Origin: a bacterium | GTDB lineage: Bacteria > 4484-113 > JALSIF01 | Direction of reading: 5' to 3' | Length of the DNA stretch: 10,099 nucleotides | Assembly (NCBI GenBank): GCA_026981635.1 | Contig: JALSIF010000288.1 | Coordinates: forward strand, 1-10,099 | In this document: positions 1-10,099 of the stretch, piece after piece | Numbering within the stretch: the first letter of the stretch is position 1 | How the letters are laid out: every line of letters begins with the position of its first letter | Notes under the pieces: model-generated | The model's input: only the letters and a program-made list of their open reading frames with translations | The model's database searches: none | Told to the model about the DNA's origin: nothing | Position numbers and translations under genes: made by a program

Positions 1-812
1 CCTGGCTTGACCCCGGCGCAGGCAAACTGGTCGCCCCCCTAATCGCGGTGGTGGCAGAAAAAGGGAGCCGGGGAACCATCTACTTTGACCTCACCGGCCC
101 CGCCGAGGCAGAGGAGAACCTGGTACTCCCCTCCATCGCCATCCTCACCGACCAGGGAGCCGATCTCACCCTGGTCCACAAGCAGACCCTGGCCCAGAGC
201 CAGTGGGTCATCGCCACCCGCCGCATTGAACTGGCCAGAGACAGCCGGCTCAAGGTGCTTGAGGTTTCGGTAGGTGGAAGGCTTGCCCGCACCGAGACCA
301 CCACCGAGATCGCCGGCCAGGGGGCCGAAGTGGAGCTTCTGGGAATAACCTTTGCCGGCAGCCGCCAGCAGATCAACCACTACGTCATCAACCGCCACAG
401 CGTGGGCAACGCCCACTCCGACCTGCTCTACAAGACCGCCGTGGGAGGGCGGGCGCGCTACGTCTTCTACGGCAACATCGTGGTGGAGAAAAACTGCGAT
501 CTCACCAATGCATATCTAGCCAACCGCAACCTCATCCTCTCCGACCAGGCCAAGGTAAACACCATGCCCACTCTGGAGATCATGAGCAACGACGTGCGCT
601 GCACCCACGGCGCCACGGTGGGCAAGCTGGATGAGGAGATGCGCTTCTACCTCCTTTCCCGCGGCATTCCACCTGCGGAGGCCCAGAAGCTCTTGGTCTT
701 CGGCTTCTTTGGCGAGGTGCTAAGCAAGATTGAAAATCCCTTCCTGCGCAAGAAGGTGGACCAGAGCGTGGCAAGAAACATTGAGCGGATCGGGACATGG
801 CAGGAGAGCTAG
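1..812 (+). CDS. sufD: SufD, Fe-S cluster assembly scaffold component (5' end cut off by window)
   Basis: SufD is part of the SufBCD complex that builds Fe-S clusters in the cytoplasm. The reading frame is open from position 3 to the window edge (it begins WLDPGAGKLVAPLIAVVAE), so the GTG at 48 is internal and the true start lies upstream. About 269 C-terminal residues are visible, against roughly 400 or more for the family. The SufB/SufD core signatures are present: NRNLILSDQAKVNTMPTLEI, then CTHGATVGKLDEE, then LLSRGI. The Cys and His of CTHGAT lie at nt 600-602 and 606-608; this His matches the conserved SufD residue at the SufB-SufD interface. It is called SufD rather than SufB from its place directly before sufS and its C-terminal ending; SufB is the main alternative. 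The gene ends inside the next one (16-nt overlap if that starts at 797), which suggests translational coupling. Confidence 0.88.
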   Translation, partial: WLDPGAGKLVAPLIAVVAEKGSRGTIYFDLTGPAEAEENLVLPSIAILTDQGADLTLVHKQTLAQSQWVIATRRIELARDSRLKVLEVSVGGRLARTETTTEIAGQGAEVELLGITFAGSRQQINHYVINRHSVGNAHSDLLYKTAVGGRARYVFYGNIVVEKNCDLTNAYLANRNLILSDQAKVNTMPTLEIMSNDVRCTHGATVGKLDEEMRFYLLSRGIPPAEAQKLLVFGFFGEVLSKIENPFLRKKVDQSVARNIERIGTWQES

Positions 813-1141
813 CCAAAAAGCAGTCGGACCAGATGGTAAGGGTTGCCCGGCTGGAGGAGCTGCCCGAGGGAGTACCGGTGTCGGTGGAGGCGGAGGGCTG
901 GTTCATCGGCCTGGTAAGGTTTGGCGATCAGGTGTTTGCCTTCCTGGACGAGTGCACCCACATGGAGGTGCCGCTTACCGAGGGAGAGGCTTCCCCCGAC
1001 CTGGTAATTACCTGCTCCGCCCACGGAGCCAAGTTTGACCTCCGCACCGGTAAGGTGCTCAGCATGCCCGCCACCGAACCCCTTACCGTCTTTCCCGTCA
1101 GGGTGGAGGATGGTGAGGTTTGGGTTAAACTACCTGAGTAG
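797..1141 (+). CDS. Rieske [2Fe-2S] ferredoxin-like protein in the suf operon
   Basis: A 114-residue stand-alone Rieske protein, the size of dioxygenase-type ferredoxins. The cluster ligands are all visible: C53-T-H55 (in DECTHMEVPL) and, 17 residues later, C73-S-A-H76 (in CSAHGAKFDLRTG). This is the CxH...CxxH pattern that binds a [2Fe-2S] cluster through two Cys and two His. There is no signal peptide or membrane anchor, so it should be a soluble cytoplasmic electron carrier. The start at 797 overlaps sufD by 16 nt. A second in-frame ATG at 833 (residue 13, MVRVARLEEL) sits at the beginning of the domain and would remove the overlap; neither start has a strong Shine-Dalgarno sequence. Its place between sufD and sufS recurs in some Gram-positive-type suf operons. 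A role in electron supply to assembly, or as a co-regulated client, is inference. Confidence 0.88.
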   Translation: MAGELAKKQSDQMVRVARLEELPEGVPVSVEAEGWFIGLVRFGDQVFAFLDECTHMEVPLTEGEASPDLVITCSAHGAKFDLRTGKVLSMPATEPLTVFPVRVEDGEVWVKLPE

Positions 1142-1153
1142 AGGGGATACTTC

Positions 1154-2443
1154 ATGGGAATGAGTATGCCGATGCCCAAGGGTAGCTCCGAGCTTGAACA
1201 GGCGGCCGAGCAGGAAGCGGCCGGCGAGTGTAGCTGGCGCAGGGACTTTCCTATCTTTAACCAACCCTACCGGGATGGAATCCCCCTCACCTATCTGGAT
1301 TCAGCCGCTACCACCCAGAAGCCCCAGGTGGTGATTGATGCCCTAAGCGACTTCTACTCCCACACCTACGCCACCGTCCACCGGGGAGCCTATGAACTTA
1401 GCTCCCAGGTGACCGACCGCTTTGACCAAGTGAGGGCCAAGCTGGCCCAGTTTCTCGGTGCTCCCGATGAGCGGGCCATCGTCTTTACCCGCAACGCCAC
1501 CGAAGCCATCAACCTGGTGGCCTACGCCTGGGGGCTGGACAATCTGAGCCCGGGCGACAACGTGGTGCTCACCATCATGGAGCACCACTCAAACATCATC
1601 CCCTGGCAGCTCATGGCCCACTACCGGGGGATTGAACTGCGCTATGTGGAAATTGACCAGCAGGGCGAGCTCAAGCTTGACCAGCTTGCCGAGCTCATTG
1701 ACGAGCACACCCGCCTGGTGGGGGTGACCCACGTCTCAAACGTGCTGGGGACAGTAAACCCCCTGCCGGAGATCGGCCGGCTGGTGAGAGAATGCTCCGA
1801 CGCCCTGATCCTCTTTGACGGCGCCCAGGCCGCCCCCCACCTGCCGGTAAACCTCACCGAGCTTGAGTTTGACTTTTATGTTCTTTCTGCCCACAAGATG
1901 CTCGGTCCCACCGGCATCGGAGCGCTTATCAGCCGAAGCGAGCTGCTTGAGAAGATGCAGCCCTTCAACGGGGGCGGCTCCATGATTGAGCGGGTTGAGC
2001 TGGACACTGCAACCTGGGCAGAACTGCCCTACAAGTTTGAGGCCGGCACCCCCCACATCGCCGGAGTGATCGGCTGGGGAGCCGCCCTGGACTACCTCAC
2101 CCAAGTGGGTATGGAGCGGGTGCTTGATCACGAGCTTGCCCTCACCGACTACGCCCTGGCGAGGCTTTCTCAGGTGCCGGGGATAAGGATCTTCGGCCAG
2201 GGCCAGAAGATGCGCCTGGGGGTGATCTCCTTTGAGCTTGCCGGCATCCACCCCCACGACATCGCCACCATCCTGGATCACCACGGGGTCTGCATCCGGG
2301 CCGGCCACCACTGCGCCCAGCTTTTAATGAAGTTTCTAGGCGTCCCCGCCACCTCTAGGGCAAGCTTTTACCTCTACAATGGGAGAGACGACGTTGACCG
2401 GCTGGTCAACGCACTGATGGAGGCGGTGGAGATCTTCCGATGA
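1154..2443 (+). CDS. sufS: SufS, group II cysteine desulfurase
   Basis: A PLP-dependent enzyme that removes sulfur from L-cysteine, giving alanine and an enzyme-bound persulfide for Fe-S assembly. The protein has 429 residues, slightly longer than the usual 405-415 because about 30 Met- and Glu-rich residues precede the conserved DFPIF. Visible active-site elements are EHHSNIIPW (143-151, with the His that stacks on PLP), FDGAQ (D222 and Q225), the PLP Schiff-base lysine K248 in SAHKMLGPTG, and the persulfide cysteine C387 in RAGHHCAQ. The RAGHHCA context and short cysteine loop are typical of SufS rather than IscS. ATG 1154 follows GAGGGG at 1141-1146 at good spacing, 12 nt after the Rieske stop. 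Its TGA overlaps the ATG of sufU, fitting a SufS-SufU sulfur-transfer pair. Confidence 0.96.
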   Translation: MGMSMPMPKGSSELEQAAEQEAAGECSWRRDFPIFNQPYRDGIPLTYLDSAATTQKPQVVIDALSDFYSHTYATVHRGAYELSSQVTDRFDQVRAKLAQFLGAPDERAIVFTRNATEAINLVAYAWGLDNLSPGDNVVLTIMEHHSNIIPWQLMAHYRGIELRYVEIDQQGELKLDQLAELIDEHTRLVGVTHVSNVLGTVNPLPEIGRLVRECSDALILFDGAQAAPHLPVNLTELEFDFYVLSAHKMLGPTGIGALISRSELLEKMQPFNGGGSMIERVELDTATWAELPYKFEAGTPHIAGVIGWGAALDYLTQVGMERVLDHELALTDYALARLSQVPGIRIFGQGQKMRLGVISFELAGIHPHDIATILDHHGVCIRAGHHCAQLLMKFLGVPATSRASFYLYNGRDDVDRLVNALMEAVEIFR

Positions 2444-2916
2444 GTCTCAGATCGCTTTACGGAAACATCATCCTTGATCACTACAAGAATCCCCGCAACA
2501 TGGGCGAACTGCCCGAGGCCGACGTGGTGGTGGAGGCTAGAAACCCCCTCTGCGGGGACGAGCTTACCCTCTACCTCAAGCTGGACGACAACCAGCGCCT
2601 GGCCGAGGTGAAGTTTACCGGAGTGGGCTGCGCCATCTCTCAGGCTTCCGCCTCCATGATGACGGTGGCCGTGCAGGGCCTGCCCAAGGAAGAGGCCGAG
2701 GAGTTGATCCAGCTCTTCAAGCAGATGGTGATGGGAGAGGCAGAGCTCGACGCCGAGGCCGAAGCCAGGCTTGGCGACCTGGTCTCCCTGGAGGGGGTGA
2801 GCCAACTCCACAACCGGGTAAAGTGCGCCACCTTGGCCTGGAACGCCCTGCAGGAAGGACTGGAAGAGTTCGCCCGCGGGGGAAGCCGCGCCGAGCTGGT
2901 GGAAAAGGCCGACTAG
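2440..2916 (+). CDS. sufU: SufU, zinc-dependent sulfurtransferase / Fe-S assembly protein
   Basis: A 158-residue IscU-fold protein. It begins with the family signature LYGNIILDHYKNPRN (residues 6-20). Three conserved cysteines and one aspartate are present: C38 and D40 in NPLCGDE, C64 in GVGCAISQASASMM, and C129 in RVKCATLAW. The long segment between the second and third cysteines (65 residues) contains the insertion that separates SufU from IscU. In characterised SufU proteins these residues bind zinc, and the protein takes the persulfide sulfur from SufS. The ATGA overlap with sufS implies translational coupling, with GGAG a few bases upstream. The gene is the last visible member of the suf operon and converges on the transaldolase gene with a 13-nt gap, where I see no terminator hairpin. 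One of only two TCGA tetranucleotides in the window lies here, at 2747-2750. Confidence 0.95.
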   Translation: MSLRSLYGNIILDHYKNPRNMGELPEADVVVEARNPLCGDELTLYLKLDDNQRLAEVKFTGVGCAISQASASMMTVAVQGLPKEEAEELIQLFKQMVMGEAELDAEAEARLGDLVSLEGVSQLHNRVKCATLAWNALQEGLEEFARGGSRAELVEKAD

Positions 2917-2929
2917 GCCCCCTCCCCGG

Positions 2930-3598
2930 CTAACCCCCTGCTCCCTCCTTTACCTCAAGCCTGGCCCTGTGCCAGTCCTCCAGGAACTTCTCCAGCCCTT
3001 GGTCAGTAAGGGGGTGGGAAAAGAGCTTCCGGAACACCCCAAAGGGGATGGTCACCACGTCAGCACCCACCAGCGCCGCCTGGCGCACGTGCTCTGGGTG
3101 GCGGACGGAGGCGGCCAGCACCTTGGTCTCAAACCCATAGGTGGCAAAGACCTCCACGATCTCCTCCAGCACCGCCACCCCGTCCATCCCGATGTCGTCC
3201 AGCCGGCCGATGAAGGGGCTCACATAGGTGGCCCCCGCCTTGGCGGCCATGATGGCCTGGTTTACCGAGAAGCAGAGGGTGAGGTTGGTCTTGATCCCCT
3301 CTTGGGAGAGGGTGGCAACCGCCCGCACCCCCTCCGGGATCAGGGGGACCTTTACCACCACCCGCTCATCCAGGGCGGCGATTCGTCGAGCCTCCTCCAG
3401 GATGCCCTGGTAGTCGGTGGCGATCACCTCGGCCGAGACCGGCCCATCCACGATCCGGCAGATCTCTCGGATGGTGCTCTCAAAGTCGGCCCCCTCCCGG
3501 GCGATGAGTGAGGGGTTGGTGGTCACCCCATCAACCACCCCGCTCTCCGCCGCCTGCCGAATCTCGTCCAGGTTTGCCGAGTCAATGAATATCTCCAC
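2930..3598 (-). CDS. tal: Transaldolase, short TalC/FSA-type family
   Basis: A class I aldolase-fold enzyme moving a dihydroxyacetone unit between sugar phosphates in the non-oxidative pentose phosphate pathway. It has 222 residues, normal for the short TalC subfamily. N-terminal IFIDSANLDEI and DGVTTNPSLIAREG are subfamily hallmarks. The Schiff-base lysine is K83 in VVVKVPLIPEG; then come GIKTNLTLCFS, SPFIGRLDDIG and a HPLTDQGLEKFLEDW ending. Two positions help to separate transaldolase from fructose-6-phosphate aldolase: E57 (aldolase has Gln) and F129 in SPFIGRLDD (aldolase has Tyr). Both point to true transaldolase activity, an inference from the known E. coli FSA and TalB enzymes. The start is GTG 3598-3596, with a strong Shine-Dalgarno GGAGGAG six bases upstream on the minus strand. 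A TATAAT box lies further upstream. The gene is transcribed alone and converges on sufU. Confidence 0.95.
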   Translation of the reverse strand: MEIFIDSANLDEIRQAAESGVVDGVTTNPSLIAREGADFESTIREICRIVDGPVSAEVIATDYQGILEEARRIAALDERVVVKVPLIPEGVRAVATLSQEGIKTNLTLCFSVNQAIMAAKAGATYVSPFIGRLDDIGMDGVAVLEEIVEVFATYGFETKVLAASVRHPEHVRQAALVGADVVTIPFGVFRKLFSHPLTDQGLEKFLEDWHRARLEVKEGAGG

Positions 3599-3604
3599 CG
3601 GCTT

Positions 3605-3611
3605 CTCCTCC
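3605..3611 (-). promoter_or_regulatory. Ribosome binding site of the transaldolase gene
   Basis: On the minus strand this reads GGAGGAG, six bases before the GTG at 3598. It fixes the GTG as the start. It also contrasts with neighbouring operon-first genes, which lack a Shine-Dalgarno and appear leaderless. Confidence 0.75.
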
Positions 3612-3639
3612 AGCCTAAGGGACTAAGTGAGTGAGCGAG

Positions 3640-3645
3640 ATTATA
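3640..3645 (-). promoter_or_regulatory. -10 box (TATAAT) of the transaldolase promoter
   Basis: The minus strand reads a perfect TATAAT here, within GGTTATAATC. Transcription would start near 3633, leaving a leader of about 35 nt that holds the Shine-Dalgarno. No convincing -35 hexamer is visible 16-19 bases upstream. It faces the plus-strand -10 box at 3672-3677. Confidence 0.55.
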
Positions 3646-3671
3646 ACCCTCAGCGGGCCTTGGGCGGCCGT

Positions 3672-3677
3672 TATACT
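3672..3677 (+). promoter_or_regulatory. -10 box (TATACT) for a leaderless ribH-tsaB transcript
   Basis: TATACT is followed by seven bases and then the ATG at 3685. The expected transcription start therefore coincides with the start codon, the arrangement of leaderless mRNAs. No -35 hexamer is recognisable. It supports ATG 3685 over the upstream GTG 3631. Confidence 0.5.
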
Positions 3678-3684
3678 CCAAGGG

Positions 3685-4161
3685 ATGGCAAAGAGCCCTC
3701 CCCTGCCCGAGGTGCACCTTCCCCGCGCCAGGGTCGCGGTGGTCCACACCTCCTGGTATGGAGAGCTGATGGATACCCTCCTCTCCCGCTTCAGCGAGAC
3801 CCTCAATCAACATGTACGAAAGCTTGAACTGGAGACCTTCCGCTGCGCGGGAAGCTTTGAGCTCCCCCAGACCTGCGCCCTGGTGAGTGAGCAACTGGAG
3901 CTTGACGGCATCGCTGCCCTAGGCATCATCGTCCAGGGGGAAACCTCCCACCACCACTACCTGGCCCGGGCGGTGATTGGGGAGCTTTGTGCCCTCTCTA
4001 CCGGCCTCTCCGTCCCCCTGGTGATGGGGGTAATCACCGCAGGAAGCCTGGAACAGGCCAGGCAGCGGGTTGACCCTGAGGGGCTGGACCGGGGAAGGGA
4101 GTTCGCCCTATCATTGCTCACCCAGATGGAGCTTTTTCAGAAGCTGAGGGAGAGGGAGTGA
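3685..4161 (+). CDS. ribH: 6,7-dimethyl-8-ribityllumazine synthase (RibH-like)
   Basis: The family enzyme condenses 5-amino-6-ribitylaminouracil with 3,4-dihydroxy-2-butanone 4-phosphate, the penultimate step of riboflavin synthesis. From ATG 3685 it has 158 residues, matching the usual 150-160. Family motifs: aromatic W24 in HTSWYGEL, AGSFELP, LGIIVQGETSHHHYLA with the catalytic-type H89, and GVITAGSLEQARQR with phosphate-binding-type R128. Numbering runs one ahead of Bacillus subtilis RibH (H88, R127). The conserved NKG lysine (K135 there) is Arg here (DRG), and the usual PG(A/S)FE has Ala for Pro; both are conservative but worth noting. An in-frame GTG at 3631 is rejected because it would run through both divergent -10 boxes and add 18 residues unlike the family. 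No other rib gene is nearby; the stop codon overlaps tsaB. Confidence 0.83.
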   Translation: MAKSPPLPEVHLPRARVAVVHTSWYGELMDTLLSRFSETLNQHVRKLELETFRCAGSFELPQTCALVSEQLELDGIAALGIIVQGETSHHHYLARAVIGELCALSTGLSVPLVMGVITAGSLEQARQRVDPEGLDRGREFALSLLTQMELFQKLRERE

Positions 4162-4871
4162 TGTTTGCCGTCTTTGACTCAAGCGCCGACCACTTCCGGG
4201 TGGTGATCGCCCGCGGGAAGCAGGTTCTGCTTGATCTCTCCTACCCCACCGACTCCAAGGAGGCCCGCCGCCTGTTTGGCTCCCTCTCCGAGGTGCTGGC
4301 CGAGCACTCCATCTCCCTCTCCCACCTTGAGTGGCTGGCCTGCGGCCGCGGCCCTGGCGGCCTCATCGCCACCCGCCACGCCATCTCGGTGGTCCACGGC
4401 TTGGCCGTAGCCCTGGACCTCCCCCTGTTTGGCCTAAACAGCCTCTATGCCCGCATCCTGGGCGAGGAGGGGGCCAGCCCTGAACACCCCGTCCTGGCGG
4501 TGGCCCCCGCCCGCCGGGGGCTGGTCTTTGCCTACCTGGCAGGTCCTGGCAGGGAGCGAGAACCCCTGCCCCTGGAGAGCTTTATGGCAGGCGACCTGGA
4601 CAAGGGCTATCTGCTGAGCGAGACCGCTGCCGCCGAGCTGAGCAGTGGGTTGGCCGACCGCTACGGGGGCCTCACCGTAATCGTCACCCGACAGGGGCTG
4701 ATGGAGACCAGCTTCGTTGACTCACGCATCACCTACCTTCACCAGCCGGTCATTCCCACCCCCGGCCTTATGAGGGCGGCCTGGCGGGCGTGTGAGAGTG
4801 AGGAGCGGGAACGAAGACACCTTCGTCCGGTCATTGAACCCATCTATCTCACCTCACCAGTGGAGGGATAG
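4161..4871 (+). CDS. tsaB: TsaB-like tRNA threonylcarbamoyladenosine biosynthesis protein
   Basis: TsaB is the non-catalytic ASKHA-fold partner that TsaD needs to make t6A37 on tRNAs reading ANN codons. About 236 residues, normal for the family. Recognisable pieces are the N-terminal FAVFDSSADHFRVVI (the family's AIDTS region), the core ACGRGPGGLIATRHAISVVH followed by GLAVALDLPLFGLNSL, APARRGLVFAYL (family DARRGEVY) and the terminal PIYL. The core is divergent: the usual SFTGLR after GPG is here GLIATR. GTG 4158 and ATG 4161 are adjacent in-frame starts; ATG is preferred because it follows GAGGGAG more suitably and overlaps the ribH stop as TGATG. The gene is probably translated from the ribH transcript. 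tsaD, tsaE and tsaC are not in the window. Confidence 0.83.
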   Translation: MFAVFDSSADHFRVVIARGKQVLLDLSYPTDSKEARRLFGSLSEVLAEHSISLSHLEWLACGRGPGGLIATRHAISVVHGLAVALDLPLFGLNSLYARILGEEGASPEHPVLAVAPARRGLVFAYLAGPGREREPLPLESFMAGDLDKGYLLSETAAAELSSGLADRYGGLTVIVTRQGLMETSFVDSRITYLHQPVIPTPGLMRAAWRACESEERERRHLRPVIEPIYLTSPVEG

Positions 4872-4881
4872 CTCCCTTTTT
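4864..4881 (+). terminator. Possible weak intrinsic terminator after tsaB
   Basis: AGGGA, a four-base loop TAGC, then TCCCT forms a five-pair stem that overlaps the tsaB stop codon and runs into a short T tract. It would separate tsaB from the next gene, which has its own -10 box. The stem is short, so efficiency is doubtful. Confidence 0.4.
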
Positions 4882-4914
4882 GTCACCTCCCCGCTCATCT
4901 ACCGTCCCCTGGCC

Positions 4915-4920
4915 TATAAT
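4915..4920 (+). promoter_or_regulatory. -10 box (TATAAT) for a leaderless FixX-like transcript
   Basis: A perfect TATAAT lies six bases before GTG 4927. The predicted transcript starts at or next to the start codon, so translation would need no Shine-Dalgarno; none is visible. A TTGTCA at 4880-4885 is too far away to be its -35 box. Confidence 0.65.
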
Positions 4921-4926
4921 CGGTGC

Positions 4927-5448
4927 GTGGCAGAGCTTTCCCTCACCGACTTTCTGGAAAAGAGCCGCGAGCTTCTGAAGAAGAACCGCGAGCTGGTGGG
5001 CGAGGGCGGCCAGGGCGGAGTGCGTGGCCACCCCGAGCTTGAGGGACACTTTGAGGAGTTTCTTCCTGCCGAGGAAAAGGGTCCCGCCAAGCGTCCCGGC
5101 CCGGTCAACTTTGAGACCCTAAAGCAGGAGGTGGAGCTACTTTCTCCCCCCGAGCGCCTGCGCTACGAGAAGGTGGACATGCTCACCAAGCTATTCCGTG
5201 ACAAGTGGGTCACCCACCCCTCCGACCCCCACCTCATCGTGGACAACGAGATCTGCGCCAAGTGCCCCGGAGAATGGTGCCTCTATGTGTGCCCCAGCCA
5301 GCGCTACTCCAAGGACGAGCAGGGGCTGATCCATGTGGACTATGAGGGGTGCTTTGAGTGCGGAACCTGCCGGGTGGCCTGCCTGCCGGGAGGGGTCTAC
5401 TGGAAGTACCCGCTGGGCTCCTTTGGGGTGAGCTACCGGGAGGGCTGA
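4927..5448 (+). CDS. FixX-type ferredoxin with a long N-terminal extension
   Basis: Residues from about 100 to 173 match FixX, the small ferredoxin that accepts electrons alongside the electron-transfer flavoprotein:quinone oxidoreductase FixABC. Typical segments are HLIVDNEIC, YEGCFECGTCRVAC and the C-terminal WKYPLGSFGVSYREG. Eight cysteines fall in two groups: C110-x2-C113-x4-C118-x3-C122-P and C142-x2-C145-x2-C148-x3-C152, room for two [4Fe-4S] clusters. Most FixX proteins are near 95 residues; this one has 173. The first 80-100 residues are charged, with a helical beginning (FLEKSRELLKKNREL), a Gly/Pro-rich stretch, then a second helical stretch. I recognise no domain in this part. GTG 4927 is chosen because TATAAT ends six bases before it; an upstream in-frame ATG at 4792 lies inside tsaB. 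No fixA, fixB or fixC is in the window, so the partner is unknown. Confidence 0.83.
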   Translation: MAELSLTDFLEKSRELLKKNRELVGEGGQGGVRGHPELEGHFEEFLPAEEKGPAKRPGPVNFETLKQEVELLSPPERLRYEKVDMLTKLFRDKWVTHPSDPHLIVDNEICAKCPGEWCLYVCPSQRYSKDEQGLIHVDYEGCFECGTCRVACLPGGVYWKYPLGSFGVSYREG

Positions 5449-5469
5449 CCCCCCAAGAGAGAAGGCTAG

Positions 5470-6825
5470 CTAGTCTTCCTTTTCCGCTTTCTTATCTAGG
5501 TTGCCTGCCTCTTTCTCCGCCTCTTCAGCTCCAGCCAGCTCCGGTGGAGGCCCGATGCGCAGGACCGGCATAACCCGGCTGCGTCTGGCCGGCTTAGCGG
5601 TCTTTAGGGCCTTATCAGCCTTGGGAGACTCTTTAACTTCGGGTTCAGCCTTGGACCGTTTGGCGGTATCCCCGCCGACACCGGTCTTCATCTCCTCAAT
5701 CACCACCGCCGGCCCAATGGCCAGACCCCTCGCTGGTGGCGCTTTTACCTTGCCCCCCGCCGGTGCAGCTGGTGAAGCACCGCCTGCCAGCTGGGGAGGT
5801 GAAACCTTTTTAACTGGTGCCCCTTGCTCGTGGGATACCCCTGTGCCCAGCTCGGGCCTGGGTCCCACTGCCGGCCTGGGGCCGCTGGGCGAGGGGGAAG
5901 TCCCACCCCTGCCCTTCCCCAGCTCTTCGGCCCTCCTGGGGGGGGCGACCCCGGGCAGTCCACCTGGGCTGGGGGATGGCTTGCTCTCCCCCTCCTCACC
6001 CCGCTTCTTCACCTTAATCTCCAAGGGAGGCTTGAGCTGCAGGGGCGGCTCCTTGTAGTCTGGCGGGACCTCGGTATTGCCGGGAAGGTCCAGGGCTACA
6101 AAGATGGTCCCCACCCCGGTGTCATACTTGACCACCTCGGTGCGGCCGTTTATATCGGCCAGCCAGAGGTACTGGGTAACCATCCCCACCTGGTAGCTGA
6201 GCTTCCTCGCCTGCCATGCCCGGTCGCCGGAGACCACTACCTCCTCCCCCACCGGGTTCCAGTAGGTCATCAGCACCCCCCGGTCCCCGGTGTGGTAGAG
6301 GGGCAGGTAGTAGCGCACATCGGGCCTGGGCTCGGCCAGGGGAAGCAGAAACATCACCTGCTCATAGTCGTAGACCGGTCCGCTCTTGGGGTAGGCGTAG
6401 CGCTTAACCCGGTCTCCCCGCCGCCGGGTGACCACGATGCGATTGGGAAGGTAGTCCACGATCCAGTAGGTGGTTTCCCCCGCCGCCACGATCTTTCGGG
6501 TGGTGCGCAGGGGGACTAACTGCTCGGGGTCAAACACCACCACCGACGACTCACTCAGGTTGGGCCCCTGGGCCATGTAGCGCAGCTCCCACATTCCCGC
6601 CCCGTACTCGGGGGAAGCCTTAACCACCTTGTAGTAGGCGGTGCCGATGCGCTTGCCGGTGGTGTCCTTGATGGCGTAGGAGAGCTCGGTGCCCGGCTTC
6701 CACTGGAAGGGACGAAAGGTGGGCAGCGAGAGCCGTACCACCCGCTGGGCGCTGGCCGGAAGGGCCAGGAGCAGCATCCCGACCACCAGGAGTACAAATA
6801 GTCCAATCCATCTAGCTCTCACCAT
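5470..6825 (-). CDS. Secreted protein, DUF3108-like domain plus Pro/Ala/Lys-rich tail
   Basis: The 451-residue product starts with a classical signal peptide: basic MVRARW, a hydrophobic core, then LALPASA with likely SPase I cleavage after A26. Residues 27 to about 275 look beta-rich, with segments such as GTELSYAIKDTTGKRIGTAY, FDPEQLVPLRTTRK and YLWLADINGRTEVVKY. These resemble DUF3108-type envelope proteins, a weak match made by eye. Residues 276-451 are low complexity, rich in Pro, Gly, Ala, Lys and Glu, ending in a charged AEEAEKEAGNLDKKAEKED, so probably disordered. I see no cysteine anywhere, no lipobox and no second membrane segment, so the mature protein is presumably exported or wall-associated. 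The function is unknown. The gene converges on the FixX-like gene with a 21-nt gap and diverges from the pseudouridine synthase. Confidence 0.8.
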   Translation of the reverse strand: MVRARWIGLFVLLVVGMLLLALPASAQRVVRLSLPTFRPFQWKPGTELSYAIKDTTGKRIGTAYYKVVKASPEYGAGMWELRYMAQGPNLSESSVVVFDPEQLVPLRTTRKIVAAGETTYWIVDYLPNRIVVTRRRGDRVKRYAYPKSGPVYDYEQVMFLLPLAEPRPDVRYYLPLYHTGDRGVLMTYWNPVGEEVVVSGDRAWQARKLSYQVGMVTQYLWLADINGRTEVVKYDTGVGTIFVALDLPGNTEVPPDYKEPPLQLKPPLEIKVKKRGEEGESKPSPSPGGLPGVAPPRRAEELGKGRGGTSPSPSGPRPAVGPRPELGTGVSHEQGAPVKKVSPPQLAGGASPAAPAGGKVKAPPARGLAIGPAVVIEEMKTGVGGDTAKRSKAEPEVKESPKADKALKTAKPARRSRVMPVLRIGPPPELAGAEEAEKEAGNLDKKAEKED

Positions 6826-6844
6826 GGCAGCATCCGCCCCCGAA

Positions 6845-6873
6845 ACGATATCAGGCCTTGTCCATTAGACCAA
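6845..6873 (-). promoter_or_regulatory. Extended -10 promoter for the secreted-protein gene
   Basis: Reading the minus strand, TTGGTC (6873-6868) is followed by a 17-base spacer and then TATCGT (6850-6845). A TG sits one base upstream of the hexamer, making an extended -10. Transcription would start near 6838, giving a leader of about 13 nt before ATG 6825. Confidence 0.45.
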
Positions 6874-6909
6874 GCTCTGCCCGGTTGGTTCTCTCCCTTT
6901 TGGCTGGTC

Positions 6910-6915
6910 TATCCT
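6910..6915 (+). promoter_or_regulatory. -10 box (TATCCT) for a leaderless pseudouridine synthase transcript
   Basis: TATCCT is followed by six bases and then GTG 6922, the same spacing as at the FixX-like gene. A possible -35, TTGGTT, lies at 6885-6890 with a long 19-base spacer. There is no Shine-Dalgarno before GTG 6922. Confidence 0.5.
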
Positions 6916-6921
6916 AGCCTG

Positions 6922-7671
6922 GTGGGCAAGGTAGAGAGCCGGCGAGCCATGCGCATAAACCGCGCCCTGGCCTTCCTGGGGGCGGGATCAAGGCGCAGGG
7001 TGGAGGAGCTTATCCGCCAGGGCAGGGTCAGGGTAAACCGGCAGGTGGTAGAGGACCTCTCCCTGCGGGTGGACCCGTGGGAGGACCTGATTGAAGTTGA
7101 CGGCAGAAGGCTTTCCCCCCCTCCCCTGCTCTACTTTGCTTACCACAAGCCGGCCGGCATCATCTCAACCCTGCGAGATGAGCGGGGAAGAAAGAGCCTT
7201 GCCCCCATTGCCGCCGCCATGGGCGGGGGCGTCTTTCCGGTGGGCCGCCTTGACCGGGAGAGCGAGGGGCTGATCGTCTTTACCAACGACGGCGAGTTCG
7301 CCCACCGCCTCCTCCACCCCAGCTTTGGCTTTACCCGGGAATACCTGGTATGGGTGAGGGGCCGCCCCGCAAAGGGGGAGCTTTCCCGCCTCACCCAAGG
7401 GGTGGAGATCGGCGAACCGAGGAGGGCCCGGGCACTCGCGGTTGAGGTGCTGGAGCAAGGAGGGAGAGAGACCAAGCTCAGGGTGGTGGTGGCCGAGGGA
7501 AGAAAGCGGCTGGTGAGGAGGATGTTTCAGGTGGTGGGCCACCCGGTGATGCGCCTGCTCAGGGTCCGCCACGGCCCCATCCGGCTGGGAGGGCTGGAAG
7601 CGGGAAGTTTTCGGCCGCTTAGCGAAGGGGAGGTCTCCGCCGTGTTGGGAGGGGATCAAGATAGACGCTAG
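6922..7671 (+). CDS. RsuA/RluB-family rRNA pseudouridine synthase
   Basis: The family isomerises a specific rRNA uridine to pseudouridine; the close RluB type acts on 23S rRNA and RsuA on 16S. The protein has 249 residues. An N-terminal S4 RNA-binding domain covers about 10-60 (INRALAFLGAGSRRRVEELI, then GRVRVN). The catalytic domain follows: YHKPAGIISTLRDERGR, the catalytic D111 in VGRLDRESEGLIVFTNDGE, TREYLVWVRG, and EGRKRLVRRMFQVVGHPV. The REYLV form and overall length lean towards RluB (23S), but the target site cannot be settled here. The start is uncertain. GTG 6922 fits the leaderless -10 spacing, whereas ATG 6949 (residue 10, MRINRALAF) fits the usual family N-terminus. The gene stands just upstream of the rimP-nusA operon but is separated from it by a promoter and an attenuator. 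Confidence 0.88.
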   Translation: MGKVESRRAMRINRALAFLGAGSRRRVEELIRQGRVRVNRQVVEDLSLRVDPWEDLIEVDGRRLSPPPLLYFAYHKPAGIISTLRDERGRKSLAPIAAAMGGGVFPVGRLDRESEGLIVFTNDGEFAHRLLHPSFGFTREYLVWVRGRPAKGELSRLTQGVEIGEPRRARALAVEVLEQGGRETKLRVVVAEGRKRLVRRMFQVVGHPVMRLLRVRHGPIRLGGLEAGSFRPLSEGEVSAVLGGDQDRR

Positions 7672-7686
7672 CGGCCCCCAAGTTGG

Positions 7687-7692
7687 TAAAAT
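7687..7692 (+). promoter_or_regulatory. -10 box (TAAAAT) of the rimP-nusA operon promoter
   Basis: TAAAAT differs from the consensus at one base and lies in the first AT-rich patch after the preceding gene. Transcription would begin near 7700, exactly where the base-paired leader begins. No good -35 hexamer is visible. Confidence 0.45.
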
Positions 7693-7700
7693 ATGTAGCT

Positions 7701-7734
7701 AGGTGAAGGCAACTCGGCGGGGCGAGTGCCACCT
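7701..7734 (+). promoter_or_regulatory. Candidate antiterminator stem of the rimP-nusA leader
   Basis: AGGT (7701-7704), GGCA (7708-7711) and CTCG (7713-7716) can pair in order with ACCT (7731-7734), TGCC (7727-7730) and CGAG (7723-7726) around the loop GCGGGG, leaving bulges GAA and A. The 3' side of this 12-pair stem covers nearly the whole 5' arm of the terminator that follows (7728-7733), so the two structures exclude each other. A shorter form, ACTCG/CGAGT (7712-7716 with 7723-7727), is compatible with the terminator. This is what a transcription attenuator looks like. The controlling factor is not evident from the sequence; feedback by an operon product such as NusA is a reasonable guess. 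Confidence 0.55.
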
Positions 7735-7754
7735 TGCGGGGTGGCTTTTTTATT
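7728..7754 (+). terminator. Intrinsic terminator inside the rimP leader (attenuator)
   Basis: GCCACC (7728-7733), a six-base loop and GGTGGC (7740-7745) form a perfect GC-rich stem followed at once by TTTTTTATT. It lies 24 bases before the rimP start and downstream of that operon's own -10 box, so it acts as a leader terminator. It could also stop read-through from the upstream gene. Confidence 0.75.
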
Positions 7755-7777
7755 CCCGCCGGGGTAGTGAGAAGGAG

Positions 7778-8299
7778 ATGGAACTTACGCCAACACAGCT
7801 GGAAGAGCGGCTGGACCGCTTCCTCCACCAGCGCGGCTATGAGCTGGTTGCGCTGGAGGTTGTCCACATGCGCGGCGGGACCCTCTTCCGGCTGTTCATT
7901 GACCGGCTGGACGAGGAGCGGGTGACCATTGGCGACTGCACCAAGCTGAGCCCTCCCCTCCGCCTGGAGCTGGAGGCACTGGGGGTCTACGACGAGAAGA
8001 GTTCCCTTGAGGTTTCCTCCCCCGGCATTGAACGGGTGCTGACCAAGACCCACCACTTTGAGCGCTTCGTGGGCCACCGCGTCAGGGTTACCTTGCTGGA
8101 CGACGGCCTGCGCAAGACCATTGTTGGGGTGCTGCAGGGGGCCGATGAGGAGCAGATCTGGCTGGGTCTTGACGCCAGGACTTCAGCTCAACTCAAGAGC
8201 ATCTCCCTGCCCGATCCCCAGATTGAGCCCGGTGCCTTGCGTCAGGTCTCCATCCCCCGCGACCAGGTGCTCCGCTGCCAGCTGGTCGCGGAGTGGTAA
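7778..8299 (+). CDS. rimP: RimP, 30S ribosomal subunit maturation factor
   Basis: RimP binds the small subunit late in assembly and helps form the head and central pseudoknot region. From ATG 7778 it has 173 residues, a little longer than the usual 150-160. The N-terminal domain shows GYELVALEVVHMRGGTLFRL, then FIDRLDEERVTIGDCTKLS and the hallmark LEVSSPGIERVL (77-88). The C-terminal SH3-like barrel covers about 95-173 (FVGHRVRVTL, TIVGVLQGADEEQIWLGL). The frame is open back to GTG 7703, but that start would translate through the leader terminator and add residues unlike RimP. ATG 7778 is preceded directly by GAAGGAG, an unusually close placement. The gene opens the rimP-nusA-ylxR-infB operon; its TAA overlaps the nusA Shine-Dalgarno. 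Confidence 0.93.
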   Translation: MELTPTQLEERLDRFLHQRGYELVALEVVHMRGGTLFRLFIDRLDEERVTIGDCTKLSPPLRLELEALGVYDEKSSLEVSSPGIERVLTKTHHFERFVGHRVRVTLLDDGLRKTIVGVLQGADEEQIWLGLDARTSAQLKSISLPDPQIEPGALRQVSIPRDQVLRCQLVAEW

Positions 8300-8305
8300 G
8301 GAGGT
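8298..8305 (+). promoter_or_regulatory. Ribosome binding site of nusA
   Basis: AAGGAGGT overlaps the rimP stop codon. Its spacing of about eight bases favours ATG 8314 over the in-frame GTG 8308, which would sit too close. Confidence 0.75.
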
Positions 8306-8313
8306 AGGTGGCC

Positions 8314-9483
8314 ATGAAGCTGGATCCCGGAGTGGTTGAAGCCCTGGCCGAAATTGAGCGCGAGCGGGGGATTGAACAGGAGCGCCTGGTGGAGCTCCTC
8401 AAGGAGGCCTTCGTTGCCGCCTGGCGCAAGGAAAACGGCGAGGACAAGGAGATTCAGATTGAGATCAATCTTGCCGCCCGCCCCCCAGTGGTGGAGGGCT
8501 ACATAGAGAAGGAGGTAGTGGAGGAGGTAACTGACCCCTCCACCCAGGTGAGCCTGGCAGATGCGCGAGAGAAGGTGGGTGAGGAGGCCGAGGTGGGTGA
8601 CATCGTCCTGGTGGAGGTGGACCTGGAAGACTTCGGTCTGCTGGCGGTGGATTACTTCCGCCACCAGCTCCAGGAGCTGCTCAGGGAAGAGGAGCGGGGC
8701 CGGGTCTACGAGCAGTTCAAGGACCGTGTCTTTGAGGTCTTCAACGTAAAGGTCCTCTATCGCGACCGGGGCGATGTCTACGTGGAGGTAGAAGAGAAGT
8801 ACGAGGGGATCATCCCCCGCCGCGAGCAGATCCCCACCGAGCGCTACGACAACGGCACCCGCCTGAAGGCCCTGCTGATTGAAGTTCAGCCCAACCGCTC
8901 ACCCATGTTGGTCTTTTCCCGTGCCCACCCCAAGCTGATTGAAAAGCTCTTTGAGCACGAGGTGCCCGAGGTAGCGGAGGGAAACATTGAGATTGTGGCC
9001 ATCGCCCGCGACCCTGGCCATCGGGCCAAGGTGGCAGTCCGCTCCAAGATCCCCGAAATTGACCCGGTGGGAACCTGCATCGGCACCAAGGGCATCCGGG
9101 TTACGGCGGTCTCCAGCGAGATCGCCAACGAAAAGATAGACCTGATTGAGTGGAAGGACGATCCCTTTGAACTCATCGCCGAGTCCCTTAGCCCGGCCAA
9201 GGTCTATTCGGTGGAGATCTTTGAGGACACCAACCGGGCCGAGGTGATCGTCCCCGACGACCAGATCGCCATCGCCATCGGCCGCGGCTGGCGCAACGTG
9301 AAGCTTGCCTCCCGCATCACCGGCTATCACATTGAGGTCAAGTCCATGTCGGAAGCTGGCCTGACGCCAGAAGAGGAAGAGGAGGAGGGAGAGGGAGACG
9401 CAGATTCCGGCGAGCAGGCAGCGGAAGCCTCCGCCAGCGGAGAGGAGAGGGAAACTAGTGCCCAGGAGGTGGAGGGTGGCTAG
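8314..9483 (+). CDS. nusA: NusA, transcription elongation / termination / antitermination factor
   Basis: NusA binds RNA polymerase and nascent RNA and modulates pausing, termination and antitermination. It has 389 residues. Domains in order: RNAP-binding NTD (1 to about 130, with LVELLKEAFVAAWRKE); S1 domain (about 135-200, GDVYVEVEEKYEGIIPRREQ); KH1 (about 201-285, FSRAHPKLIEKLFEHEVPEV and the loop G257-T-K-G260 in IGTKGIRV); KH2 (about 290-345, LSPAKV and VPDDQIAIAIG). A Glu-rich tail (352-389) replaces the AR repeats of proteobacterial NusA. KH2 is odd: the usual IGK(G/E)GQN reads IGRGWRN, with Trp (nt 9289-9291) in the last GXXG position. ATG 8314 is set by the Shine-Dalgarno at 8298-8305. 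Confidence 0.96.
   Translation: MKLDPGVVEALAEIERERGIEQERLVELLKEAFVAAWRKENGEDKEIQIEINLAARPPVVEGYIEKEVVEEVTDPSTQVSLADAREKVGEEAEVGDIVLVEVDLEDFGLLAVDYFRHQLQELLREEERGRVYEQFKDRVFEVFNVKVLYRDRGDVYVEVEEKYEGIIPRREQIPTERYDNGTRLKALLIEVQPNRSPMLVFSRAHPKLIEKLFEHEVPEVAEGNIEIVAIARDPGHRAKVAVRSKIPEIDPVGTCIGTKGIRVTAVSSEIANEKIDLIEWKDDPFELIAESLSPAKVYSVEIFEDTNRAEVIVPDDQIAIAIGRGWRNVKLASRITGYHIEVKSMSEAGLTPEEEEEEGEGDADSGEQAAEASASGEERETSAQEVEGG
9464..9469 (+). promoter_or_regulatory. Ribosome binding site of ylxR, inside the nusA 3' end
   Basis: AGGAGG followed by six bases and GTG 9476. This placement selects GTG 9476 over the in-frame GTG at 9458, which lies upstream of the site. Confidence 0.7.
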
Positions 9484-9832
9484 CGCTCCCTGGGTTCCCA
9501 TCCGCACCTGTATCGGCTGCCGCCGCCGCCTGCCCAAGCCGCAGCTTATCGTGATCAAACTTAATGAGGGACGCTTTGAGGTCTACCCACCGGGCACCAA
9601 ACTGCCGGGGCGCAGTCTATATCTCTGTCCCCGGGCCGACTGTCTGGATAAGCTGAGGCGCCGCAAGAAGGTGGTTTTCAAAGCCCAGCCACCCGGCAGG
9701 TCTATAATCCCGCTCTCAAGCGAGGCGGGCAGGGAGCTGCTCGCCAAGCTGGCCCGGCTGATTGAGAGGCTCGGCCCGCCAGATGAGAACCGGCTGGCGG
9801 GGCCCGGTCAGGCCAGGCGGGGAGAAATGTAG
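9476..9832 (+). CDS. ylxR: YlxR family (DUF448) nucleic-acid-binding protein
   Basis: A small basic protein found between nusA and infB in many bacteria; described members bind RNA or nucleoid DNA, and the exact role is unsettled. From GTG 9476 it has 118 residues. The signature PIRTCIGCRRRLPKPQLI (8-25) carries C12 and C15; GRSLYLCPRADC (45-56) carries C51 and C56; the basic LRRRKKVVFKA (60-70) follows. The four cysteines could bind a metal in this protein, which is inference. The gene overlaps nusA by 8 nt and is followed four bases later by infB, so all are co-translated. The tail after residue 95 (ERLGPPDENRLAGPGQARRG) extends past the core domain. The L7Ae-like ylxQ gene that often follows ylxR is absent. 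Confidence 0.9.
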   Translation: MASAPWVPIRTCIGCRRRLPKPQLIVIKLNEGRFEVYPPGTKLPGRSLYLCPRADCLDKLRRRKKVVFKAQPPGRSIIPLSSEAGRELLAKLARLIERLGPPDENRLAGPGQARRGEM

Positions 9833-9836
9833 CCAT

Positions 9837-10099
9837 ATGCCTGCAAAACTGATCACACTGCTCAGGCGCTTCAAGGGATTGGGCGTAAGCTCAGTGGAGG
9901 AGCTCATTGAGCTGCTCGCCCAGCTGCGCGGCGTCAAACCCGACAGCATCTCCGCCATGGAGACGGTAAGCGACGACGAGGTCGCCGCCCTGGAGCAGCT
10001 GGTCAAGGGAAACGGCGCCGCTGCCGAGGTGAAAAAAAAGCCCCCCCAGCCCAAGCGAGTCCAGCCCGCCCGTCGCCTGAGAAGAAAGATAAGCGAGCT
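9837..10099 (+). CDS. infB: Translation initiation factor IF-2, N-terminal part (runs off window)
   Basis: An open frame starts at ATG 9837, four bases after the ylxR stop, and continues past the window end; 87 codons are visible. Residues 12-57 (FKGLGVSSVEELIELLAQL, then VSDDEVAALEQLV) resemble the small helical IF2_N module: a LGVSS-type start and a DDEV..L ending. A basic, Pro/Ala/Lys-rich linker begins at residue 60 (EVKKKPPQPKRVQPARRLRR), as expected before the GTPase domain. The assignment rests on this module and on position after nusA-ylxR; the GTPase motifs lie outside the window. The nearest Shine-Dalgarno-like sequence, GGGGAG at 9819-9824, is 12 bases from the start, rather far. 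Confidence 0.72.
   Translation, partial: MPAKLITLLRRFKGLGVSSVEELIELLAQLRGVKPDSISAMETVSDDEVAALEQLVKGNGAAAEVKKKPPQPKRVQPARRLRRKISE

What the first reader, a model, noticed from the sequence alone, without database searches (positions are those of the whole stretch)
1..10099. Near-complete avoidance of the tetranucleotide TCGA, which dictates codon choice
Scanning all lines I found only two TCGA: 2747-2750 (in sufU) and 3386-3389 (in the transaldolase gene). Base composition near 60% GC would predict about thirty, a rough estimate. TCG and CGA trinucleotides are common (atcgcc, ccgagg), as are GATC and GGCC, so this is specific to TCGA. It shows in the codons: before a GA-starting codon, Ile, Leu, Phe and Val are written ATT, CTT, TTT or GTT (attgag, cttgac, tttgag, gttgac), while ATC, CTC and GTC dominate elsewhere. 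NNC codons without T in second place precede GA codons freely (gccgag, aacgac). TCGA is the TaqI-type palindrome, so long exposure to a TCGA-specific restriction-modification system, or another TCGA-binding process, is a plausible cause.
Basis: partly seen in the sequence, partly recalled or inferred. Interest (0 to 1): 0.72.

Follow-up and report, generated by a model that had tools for sequence, protein, structure and literature searches.

The report
Genome-wide loss of the word TCGA
This bacterium has purged the four-letter DNA word TCGA from nearly its whole genome, keeping it mainly where RNA structure needs it and changing synonymous codons elsewhere; this is best read as the footprint of a TCGA-cutting or TCGA-marking enzyme, a known kind of effect (seen in Helicobacter pylori) at an unusually extreme strength.

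Summary
The window has exactly two TCGA (2747, 3386) against 21-27 expected. In 629 kb of the same draft genome there are 106 (O/E 0.09, the lowest palindromic 4-mer; next GTAC 0.51). Against a codon-shuffled null, O/E is 0.02 for TC|GA and TCG|A and 0.21 for T|CGA. Short intergenic gaps are also depleted (12 vs 33-56). Sixteen of 17 tRNA/tmRNA genes keep TCGA (T-loop), and 6S RNA keeps two, so the pressure yields to RNA structure. Nine same-class relatives lack comparable depletion (0.5-1.8). Missing NTC|GA codons reappear mostly as NTT|GA, so loss went by C-to-T.

The 85%-complete genome showed two DNA methyltransferases: a recently acquired DpnII-type system, and a native orphan, P0003, a divergent CcrM relative. 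A relative pairing a P0003-like methyltransferase with a type II REase shows TCGA as its most depleted 4-mer versus a congener without that REase. I favour long exposure to a TCGA-specific R-M system, P0003 being an unproven candidate; m5C deamination is the main rival. H. pylori (TCGA O/E 0.05) is a precedent: a new member of a known kind.

The parts
1..10099 (.). Whole window (contig C288 of G000): region almost free of TCGA
   Evidence: 2 observed vs 21-27 expected; same in 78 sampled contigs, 106 in 629 kb
2747..2750 (.). Residual TCGA, frame TC|GA (Leu CTC - Asp GAC) in the NifU/SufU-like gene 2440-2916
3386..3389 (.). Residual TCGA, frame T|CGA (before an Arg CGA codon) in the transaldolase/FSA gene 2930-3598 (-); the frame in which C-to-T would change the protein

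Best explanation
The lineage lived for a long time with a DNA-level agent that recognises TCGA, most likely a type II restriction-modification system (endonuclease plus m6A methyltransferase). Any TCGA escaping methylation risked being cut, so sites were lost wherever they could be. In genes this happened mostly by synonymous C-to-T changes: NTC|GA became NTT|GA, and TCG|A was lost too. Sites were kept where the sequence is needed: tRNA T-loops, 6S RNA, and partly the Arg context T|CGA. Shown here: specific, genome-wide depletion in all frames and between genes, no comparable depletion in same-class relatives, retention in structural RNAs, and a C-to-T direction of loss. Inferred: that the agent is an R-M system. 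The enzyme is not proven. The best candidate is P0003 (G000:C157:14447-15322 -), a native orphan, divergent CcrM-like adenine methyltransferase whose endonuclease partner would have been lost or lies in the missing part of the draft genome (my probability about 0.35). Otherwise the system is lost or unbinned.
For: Genome-wide O/E 0.09, lowest palindromic 4-mer; frames TCG|A 4/200, TC|GA 49/2586, T|CGA 13/62 against codon shuffles; intergenic gaps 12 vs 33-56; relatives 0.49-1.81 and normal by frame; 16 of 17 tRNA/tmRNA genes keep the site, two sites in 6S RNA. Precedent of the same size: H. pylori TCGA O/E 0.05 (PMC3849833) with m6A at TCGA (PMC4450513; PMC3983042). For P0003: it is in the genome with native composition and no partner; it clusters with the G006 and G003 methyltransferases at 100/99 support, apart from CcrM; in G006 that gene is followed by a predicted type II endonuclease and TCGA is the word most depleted relative to congener G003, which lacks that neighbour.
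Against: No TaqI-type methyltransferase or endonuclease in the genome, though it is 85% complete. P0003 could simply be a GANTC enzyme: GANTC is 0.51-0.57. G003, with a close relative of P0003, is not TCGA-depleted (0.94-0.96). A genome with a TaqI-type M+R pair, G027, is only mildly depleted (0.60). The C-to-T direction and the milder loss at T|CGA are also what m5C deamination predicts.
Confidence: 0.58

Rival explanations
1. Mutation-driven loss: a (now unseen) C5-methyltransferase methylated the C of TCGA, and 5mC deaminated to T, turning TCGA into TTGA/TCAA at synonymous positions, with little or no selection by an endonuclease.
For: NTT:NTA odds before GA 3.09 in Ile/Val/Leu vs 1.46 in other boxes, no such contrast in relatives; for Val the lost GTC share (-0.100) is matched by GTT (+0.118); T|CGA, where both C-to-T routes change the protein or make a stop, is about 10 times less depleted than TC|GA. 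Precedent: ACGT in H. pylori (PMC10423294).
Against: No C5-methyltransferase (PF00145) and no Vsr in the genome. No TTGA/TCAA excess between genes and weaker intergenic depletion. TCG|A to TCA|A shows no clear excess over other boxes. A recent strong purge under ordinary transition bias would look similar.
Confidence: 0.25
2. The orphan methyltransferase P0003 marks TCGA, and methylated sites are selected against for regulatory or replication reasons, without any endonuclease.
For: P0003 is the only native DNA methyltransferase found; it has no endonuclease neighbour.
Against: G003 has a close relative of P0003, no neighbouring endonuclease, and no TCGA depletion. P0003's specificity is unknown and may be GANTC.
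Confidence: 0.08
3. RNA-level avoidance: an endoribonuclease or mRNA interferase cleaves UCGA in mRNA, so coding sequence avoids it while structured RNAs are shielded.
For: Stronger depletion in genes than between them, retention in tRNA and 6S RNA.
Against: Divergent promoter gaps, largely untranscribed, are also depleted (2 vs 8-16); the frame difference is not predicted; no such enzyme was looked for or identified.
Confidence: 0.05
4. Codon-pair or translational bias, base composition, or an assembly artefact.
For: Other codon-pair contexts are biased in this genome (for example NCG before A at 0.24-0.42).
Against: All three frames and intergenic DNA are depleted, while sister 4-mers are not. 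Every sampled contig has at most 5 sites.
Confidence: 0.02

Closest known systems
TCGA avoidance in Helicobacter pylori (HpyV site; M.HpyAX and relatives, m6A at TCGA; PMC3849833, PMC4450513, PMC3983042)
   Same: Same 4-mer and the same order of depletion (whole-genome O/E 0.05 of base-composition expectation there; 0.02-0.09 here depending on the null).
   Different: There the methyltransferase is known and the site is shown to be methylated; here no enzyme is assigned and the organism is an uncultured, GC-rich draft genome.
m5C-deamination-driven motif loss (ACGT in H. pylori, PMC10423294)
   Same: C-to-T direction of loss and dependence on reading frame.
   Different: No C5-methyltransferase found here, and no TTGA excess between genes.
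CcrM / HinfI-type adenine methyltransferases (GANTC)
   Same: P0003 is a homologue and an orphan in native context; GANTC is mildly avoided (0.51-0.57).
   Different: P0003 sits in a divergent long-branch clade, lacks the C-terminal third of the CcrM model, and scores far below the equivalog cut-off.
TaqI restriction-modification system (TCGA)
   Same: Same recognition word as the avoided one.
   Different: Neither TaqI_C methyltransferase nor RE_TaqI found in this genome; a genome that has both (G027) is only mildly depleted (0.60).

Membership tests
Restriction-site avoidance of a palindrome | Genome-wide, word-specific depletion beyond composition and codon usage | tested here: met
   O/E 0.09; 66 vs 2868 against codon shuffles; sister words normal
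Restriction-site avoidance of a palindrome | A cognate R-M system, present or past | tested here: inconclusive
   No TCGA-specific enzyme identified; genome 85% complete
TaqI-type R-M | RE_TaqI (PF09573) and TaqI_C methyltransferase (PF12950) | tested here: not met
   Neither in G000; control Thermus rings
m5C-driven motif decay | C5-methyltransferase (PF00145) | tested here: not met
   None in G000, with the caveat of 85% completeness
m5C-driven motif decay | Loss directed C to T | tested here: met
   but not seen between genes
CcrM (GANTC orphan methyltransferase), for P0003 | Homology to CcrM | tested here: met
   296 bits to the CcrM model, 240 bits to PDB 6pbd
CcrM (GANTC orphan methyltransferase), for P0003 | Full-length equivalog score and C-terminal region | tested here: not met
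   296 against a cut-off of 830; matches model 3-254 of 350
CcrM (GANTC orphan methyltransferase), for P0003 | Methylates GANTC | not testable with these tools
   GANTC O/E 0.51-0.57 is compatible but weak
DpnII/MboI-type R-M, for P0001/P0002 | DpnII endonuclease family (PF04556) next to an adenine-type methyltransferase | tested here: met
   GATC as target is general knowledge; GATC O/E 0.81

The most novel reading that the evidence does not exclude
P0003 is the TCGA methyltransferase: a CcrM-class adenine methyltransferase that switched specificity from GANTC to TCGA as part of an R-M system (as in G006), then was kept as a native orphan whose target has been almost erased from the genome.
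Probability: 0.25. Interest if true: 0.6.

Novelty: new member of a known kind. Interest (0 to 1): 0.42.

Why it matters
A near-total purge of one 4-mer at silent sites (about 50-fold against codon shuffles) is among the stronger such footprints, of the order reported for TCGA in H. pylori. It offers a within-genome contrast between reading frames and structural RNAs for separating selection by restriction from mutation by methylation. It also shows that codon usage in such a genome cannot be read without the word constraint: Ile and Phe codon choice before Asp/Glu is almost wholly set by it.

Tried and rejected
Codon-pair or translational bias as the cause: rejected, since all three frames and intergenic DNA are depleted. 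Base composition: rejected, sister 4-mers are normal. TaqI-type genes, Eco57I, HsdM-like N6_Mtase, D12, C5 methyltransferases and Vsr: not found in G000; the MT-A70 search was uninformative because no control rang. The DpnII-type system on C275 as the cause: unlikely, since it is AT-rich (GC 0.47/0.35 against 0.64 for the genome), apparently recent, its methyltransferase gene itself holds a TCGA, and GATC is the expected target. Host phages via CRISPR spacers: three spacers matched no viral contig. Homologues of the G006 endonuclease: none in plasmids, phages, viral contigs or the sampled part of G000. The absence of ATTT in the window is not genome-wide. 16S rRNA was not found in the bin, so the lineage could not be named that way.

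Full report
Observation. The window (contig C288 of a 1.745 Mb, 317-contig, 85%-complete draft genome, G000) contains TCGA only at 2747 and 3386, against 21 (maximal-order Markov) or 27 (first-order) expected. In window genes, before a GA-codon there is no ATC, TTC or GTC and one CTC, whereas before other codons there are 107, 38, 72 and 92.

Genome scale. I read 78 contigs (629,086 bases): 106 TCGA, O/E 0.09; the next palindromes are GTAC 0.51, CGCG 0.53, CTAG 0.54. Nine other genomes of the same class, sampled at 13-40 kb each, give 0.49-1.81. No genome of the same family or order was listed among the relatives, so as far as the held genomes show, the depletion arose within this lineage. A codon-shuffled null that keeps every protein and the overall codon usage gives TCG|A 4 of 200, TC|GA 49 of 2586 and T|CGA 13 of 62. 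Neighbouring words in the same frames give a fairer baseline (NCG|A 0.24-0.42; TC|G[CGT] 0.54-0.69; N|CGA 0.67-1.24), so the corrected values are about 0.06, 0.03 and 0.2. In the relatives the three frames are 0.5-2.0. Intergenic gaps of 20-300 bases hold 12 against 33 (maximal-order) or 56 (first-order), and divergent promoter gaps 2 against 8 or 16. The effect is therefore a property of the word, not of one codon pair.

Where the word survives. Of the 106 sites, 18 lie in tRNA genes; 16 of 17 tRNA/tmRNA genes contain it, nearly always as the T-loop TTCGA (listing 12 of them). Two more lie in a 6S RNA (L018:5464-5622, sites 5500 and 5554). The pressure is therefore not absolute: sites that RNA structure requires are tolerated, which means they are protected from any active nuclease or the nuclease is gone. 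The Arg context T|CGA is the least depleted in genes. Ten proteins, nine or more of them bearing such sites in real genes, have solid Pfam matches, and the window's second site is of this kind, in the transaldolase gene.

Direction of loss. Before GA, NTT gains on NTA far more than third-position T gains on A in other codon boxes: pooled odds ratio 3.09 versus 1.46, while three groups of relatives show 1.75 vs 1.99, 1.03 vs 1.01 and 1.16 vs 1.44. For Val, with Gly used to predict context effects, GTC falls by 0.100 and GTT rises by 0.118 with GTG nearly unchanged; Leu and Ile go mostly the same way, Ile less clearly. Under equilibrium selection against the word alone, the other codons should keep their usual proportions (inference from detailed balance). 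The pattern therefore points either to C-to-T hypermutation (5mC) or to a purge fast enough that the commonest mutation, C-to-T, supplied the replacements. The milder loss at T|CGA fits both. Two observations do not fit simple 5mC decay: no TTGA excess between genes and weaker intergenic depletion. The intergenic set is small and includes structural RNA and possibly miscalled gene starts.

Gene calls. Genes were called in the Python box by open reading frame and codon usage, not by a curated annotation; the frame results were stable over three rounds of calling (T|CGA 0.28, then 12 sites, then 0.21).

Candidate enzymes. In G000 searches found no TaqI_C, RE_TaqI, C5 methyltransferase, Eco57I, N6_Mtase, D12 or Vsr. 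Only two PF01555 methyltransferases were found. P0001 on C275 lies next to a DpnII-family endonuclease, P0002; both are AT-rich (GC 0.47 and 0.35) and so probably recent, and the family's usual target is GATC (general knowledge), which is hardly avoided (0.81). P0003 on C157 has native composition and no endonuclease neighbour. It resembles CcrM (296 bits, far under the equivalog cut-off of 830, matching model positions 3-254 of 350). On a small tree it joins the methyltransferases of G006 and G003 (100/99) on a long branch apart from CcrM proper. In G006 that methyltransferase is followed at once by a predicted type II endonuclease; in G003, of the same genus, that neighbour is absent. TCGA is the word most depleted in G006 relative to G003 (maximal-order log2 -0.89 against an overall spread of 0.16; GATC second at -0.79). 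This hints that the P0003 clade recognises TCGA and that avoidance needs the endonuclease. It is only a hint: the samples are 36 and 48 kb, other R-M systems differ too, GANTC is also mildly avoided in G000 (0.51-0.57), and G016 shows TCGA 0.30 with a more CcrM-like enzyme.

Comparison with the known. H. pylori shows TCGA at O/E 0.05 of base-composition expectation for the HpyV site (PMC3849833) and carries m6A at TCGA (526 sites; PMC4450513; M.HpyAX, PMC3983042). Deamination of m5C with reading-frame dependence is documented for ACGT in the same species (PMC10423294). A genome with adjacent TaqI-type methyltransferase and endonuclease (G027) has only mild TCGA depletion (0.60). The case here is a new, very strong member of a known kind; its enzyme is unassigned.

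Verdict. Observation confirmed and extended to the genome. Best explanation: long exposure to a TCGA-specific restriction-modification system (0.58), with m5C-driven mutation as the main rival (0.25). Interest 0.42.

Noticed in passing
G016 samples L185-L188: AGNCT is almost absent (2 observed vs 109 expected in 66 kb), together with TCGA 0.30 and CTAG 0.26: another extreme word avoidance in an unrelated genome.
   Followed up: no
G000 sampled contigs (629 kb): CGATCG is also depleted (23 vs 84 expected; relatives pooled 107 vs 135), as is TCGCGA (37 vs 85).
   Followed up: partly
L034:33-470 (G000:C270): CRISPR array of six repeats (36-nt unit ATTCAAATCATTGCCCCGATTCAAGGGGATTACGAC) at a contig end; three spacers had no match in viral contigs.
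   Followed up: partly
window 5470-6825 (-): 451-aa ORF with an N-terminal signal-like stretch and a long Pro/Lys-rich tail, no Pfam match.
   Followed up: no
window 10052-10099: The last 48 bases are identical to the first 48 of contig C114, an assembly-graph overlap, so C114 probably continues this contig.
   Followed up: no
G012, G018, G028 samples (L191-L193, L196): CTAG absent or nearly so (0.00-0.06); in G012 GTAC is absent too, in 10-22 kb samples.
   Followed up: no
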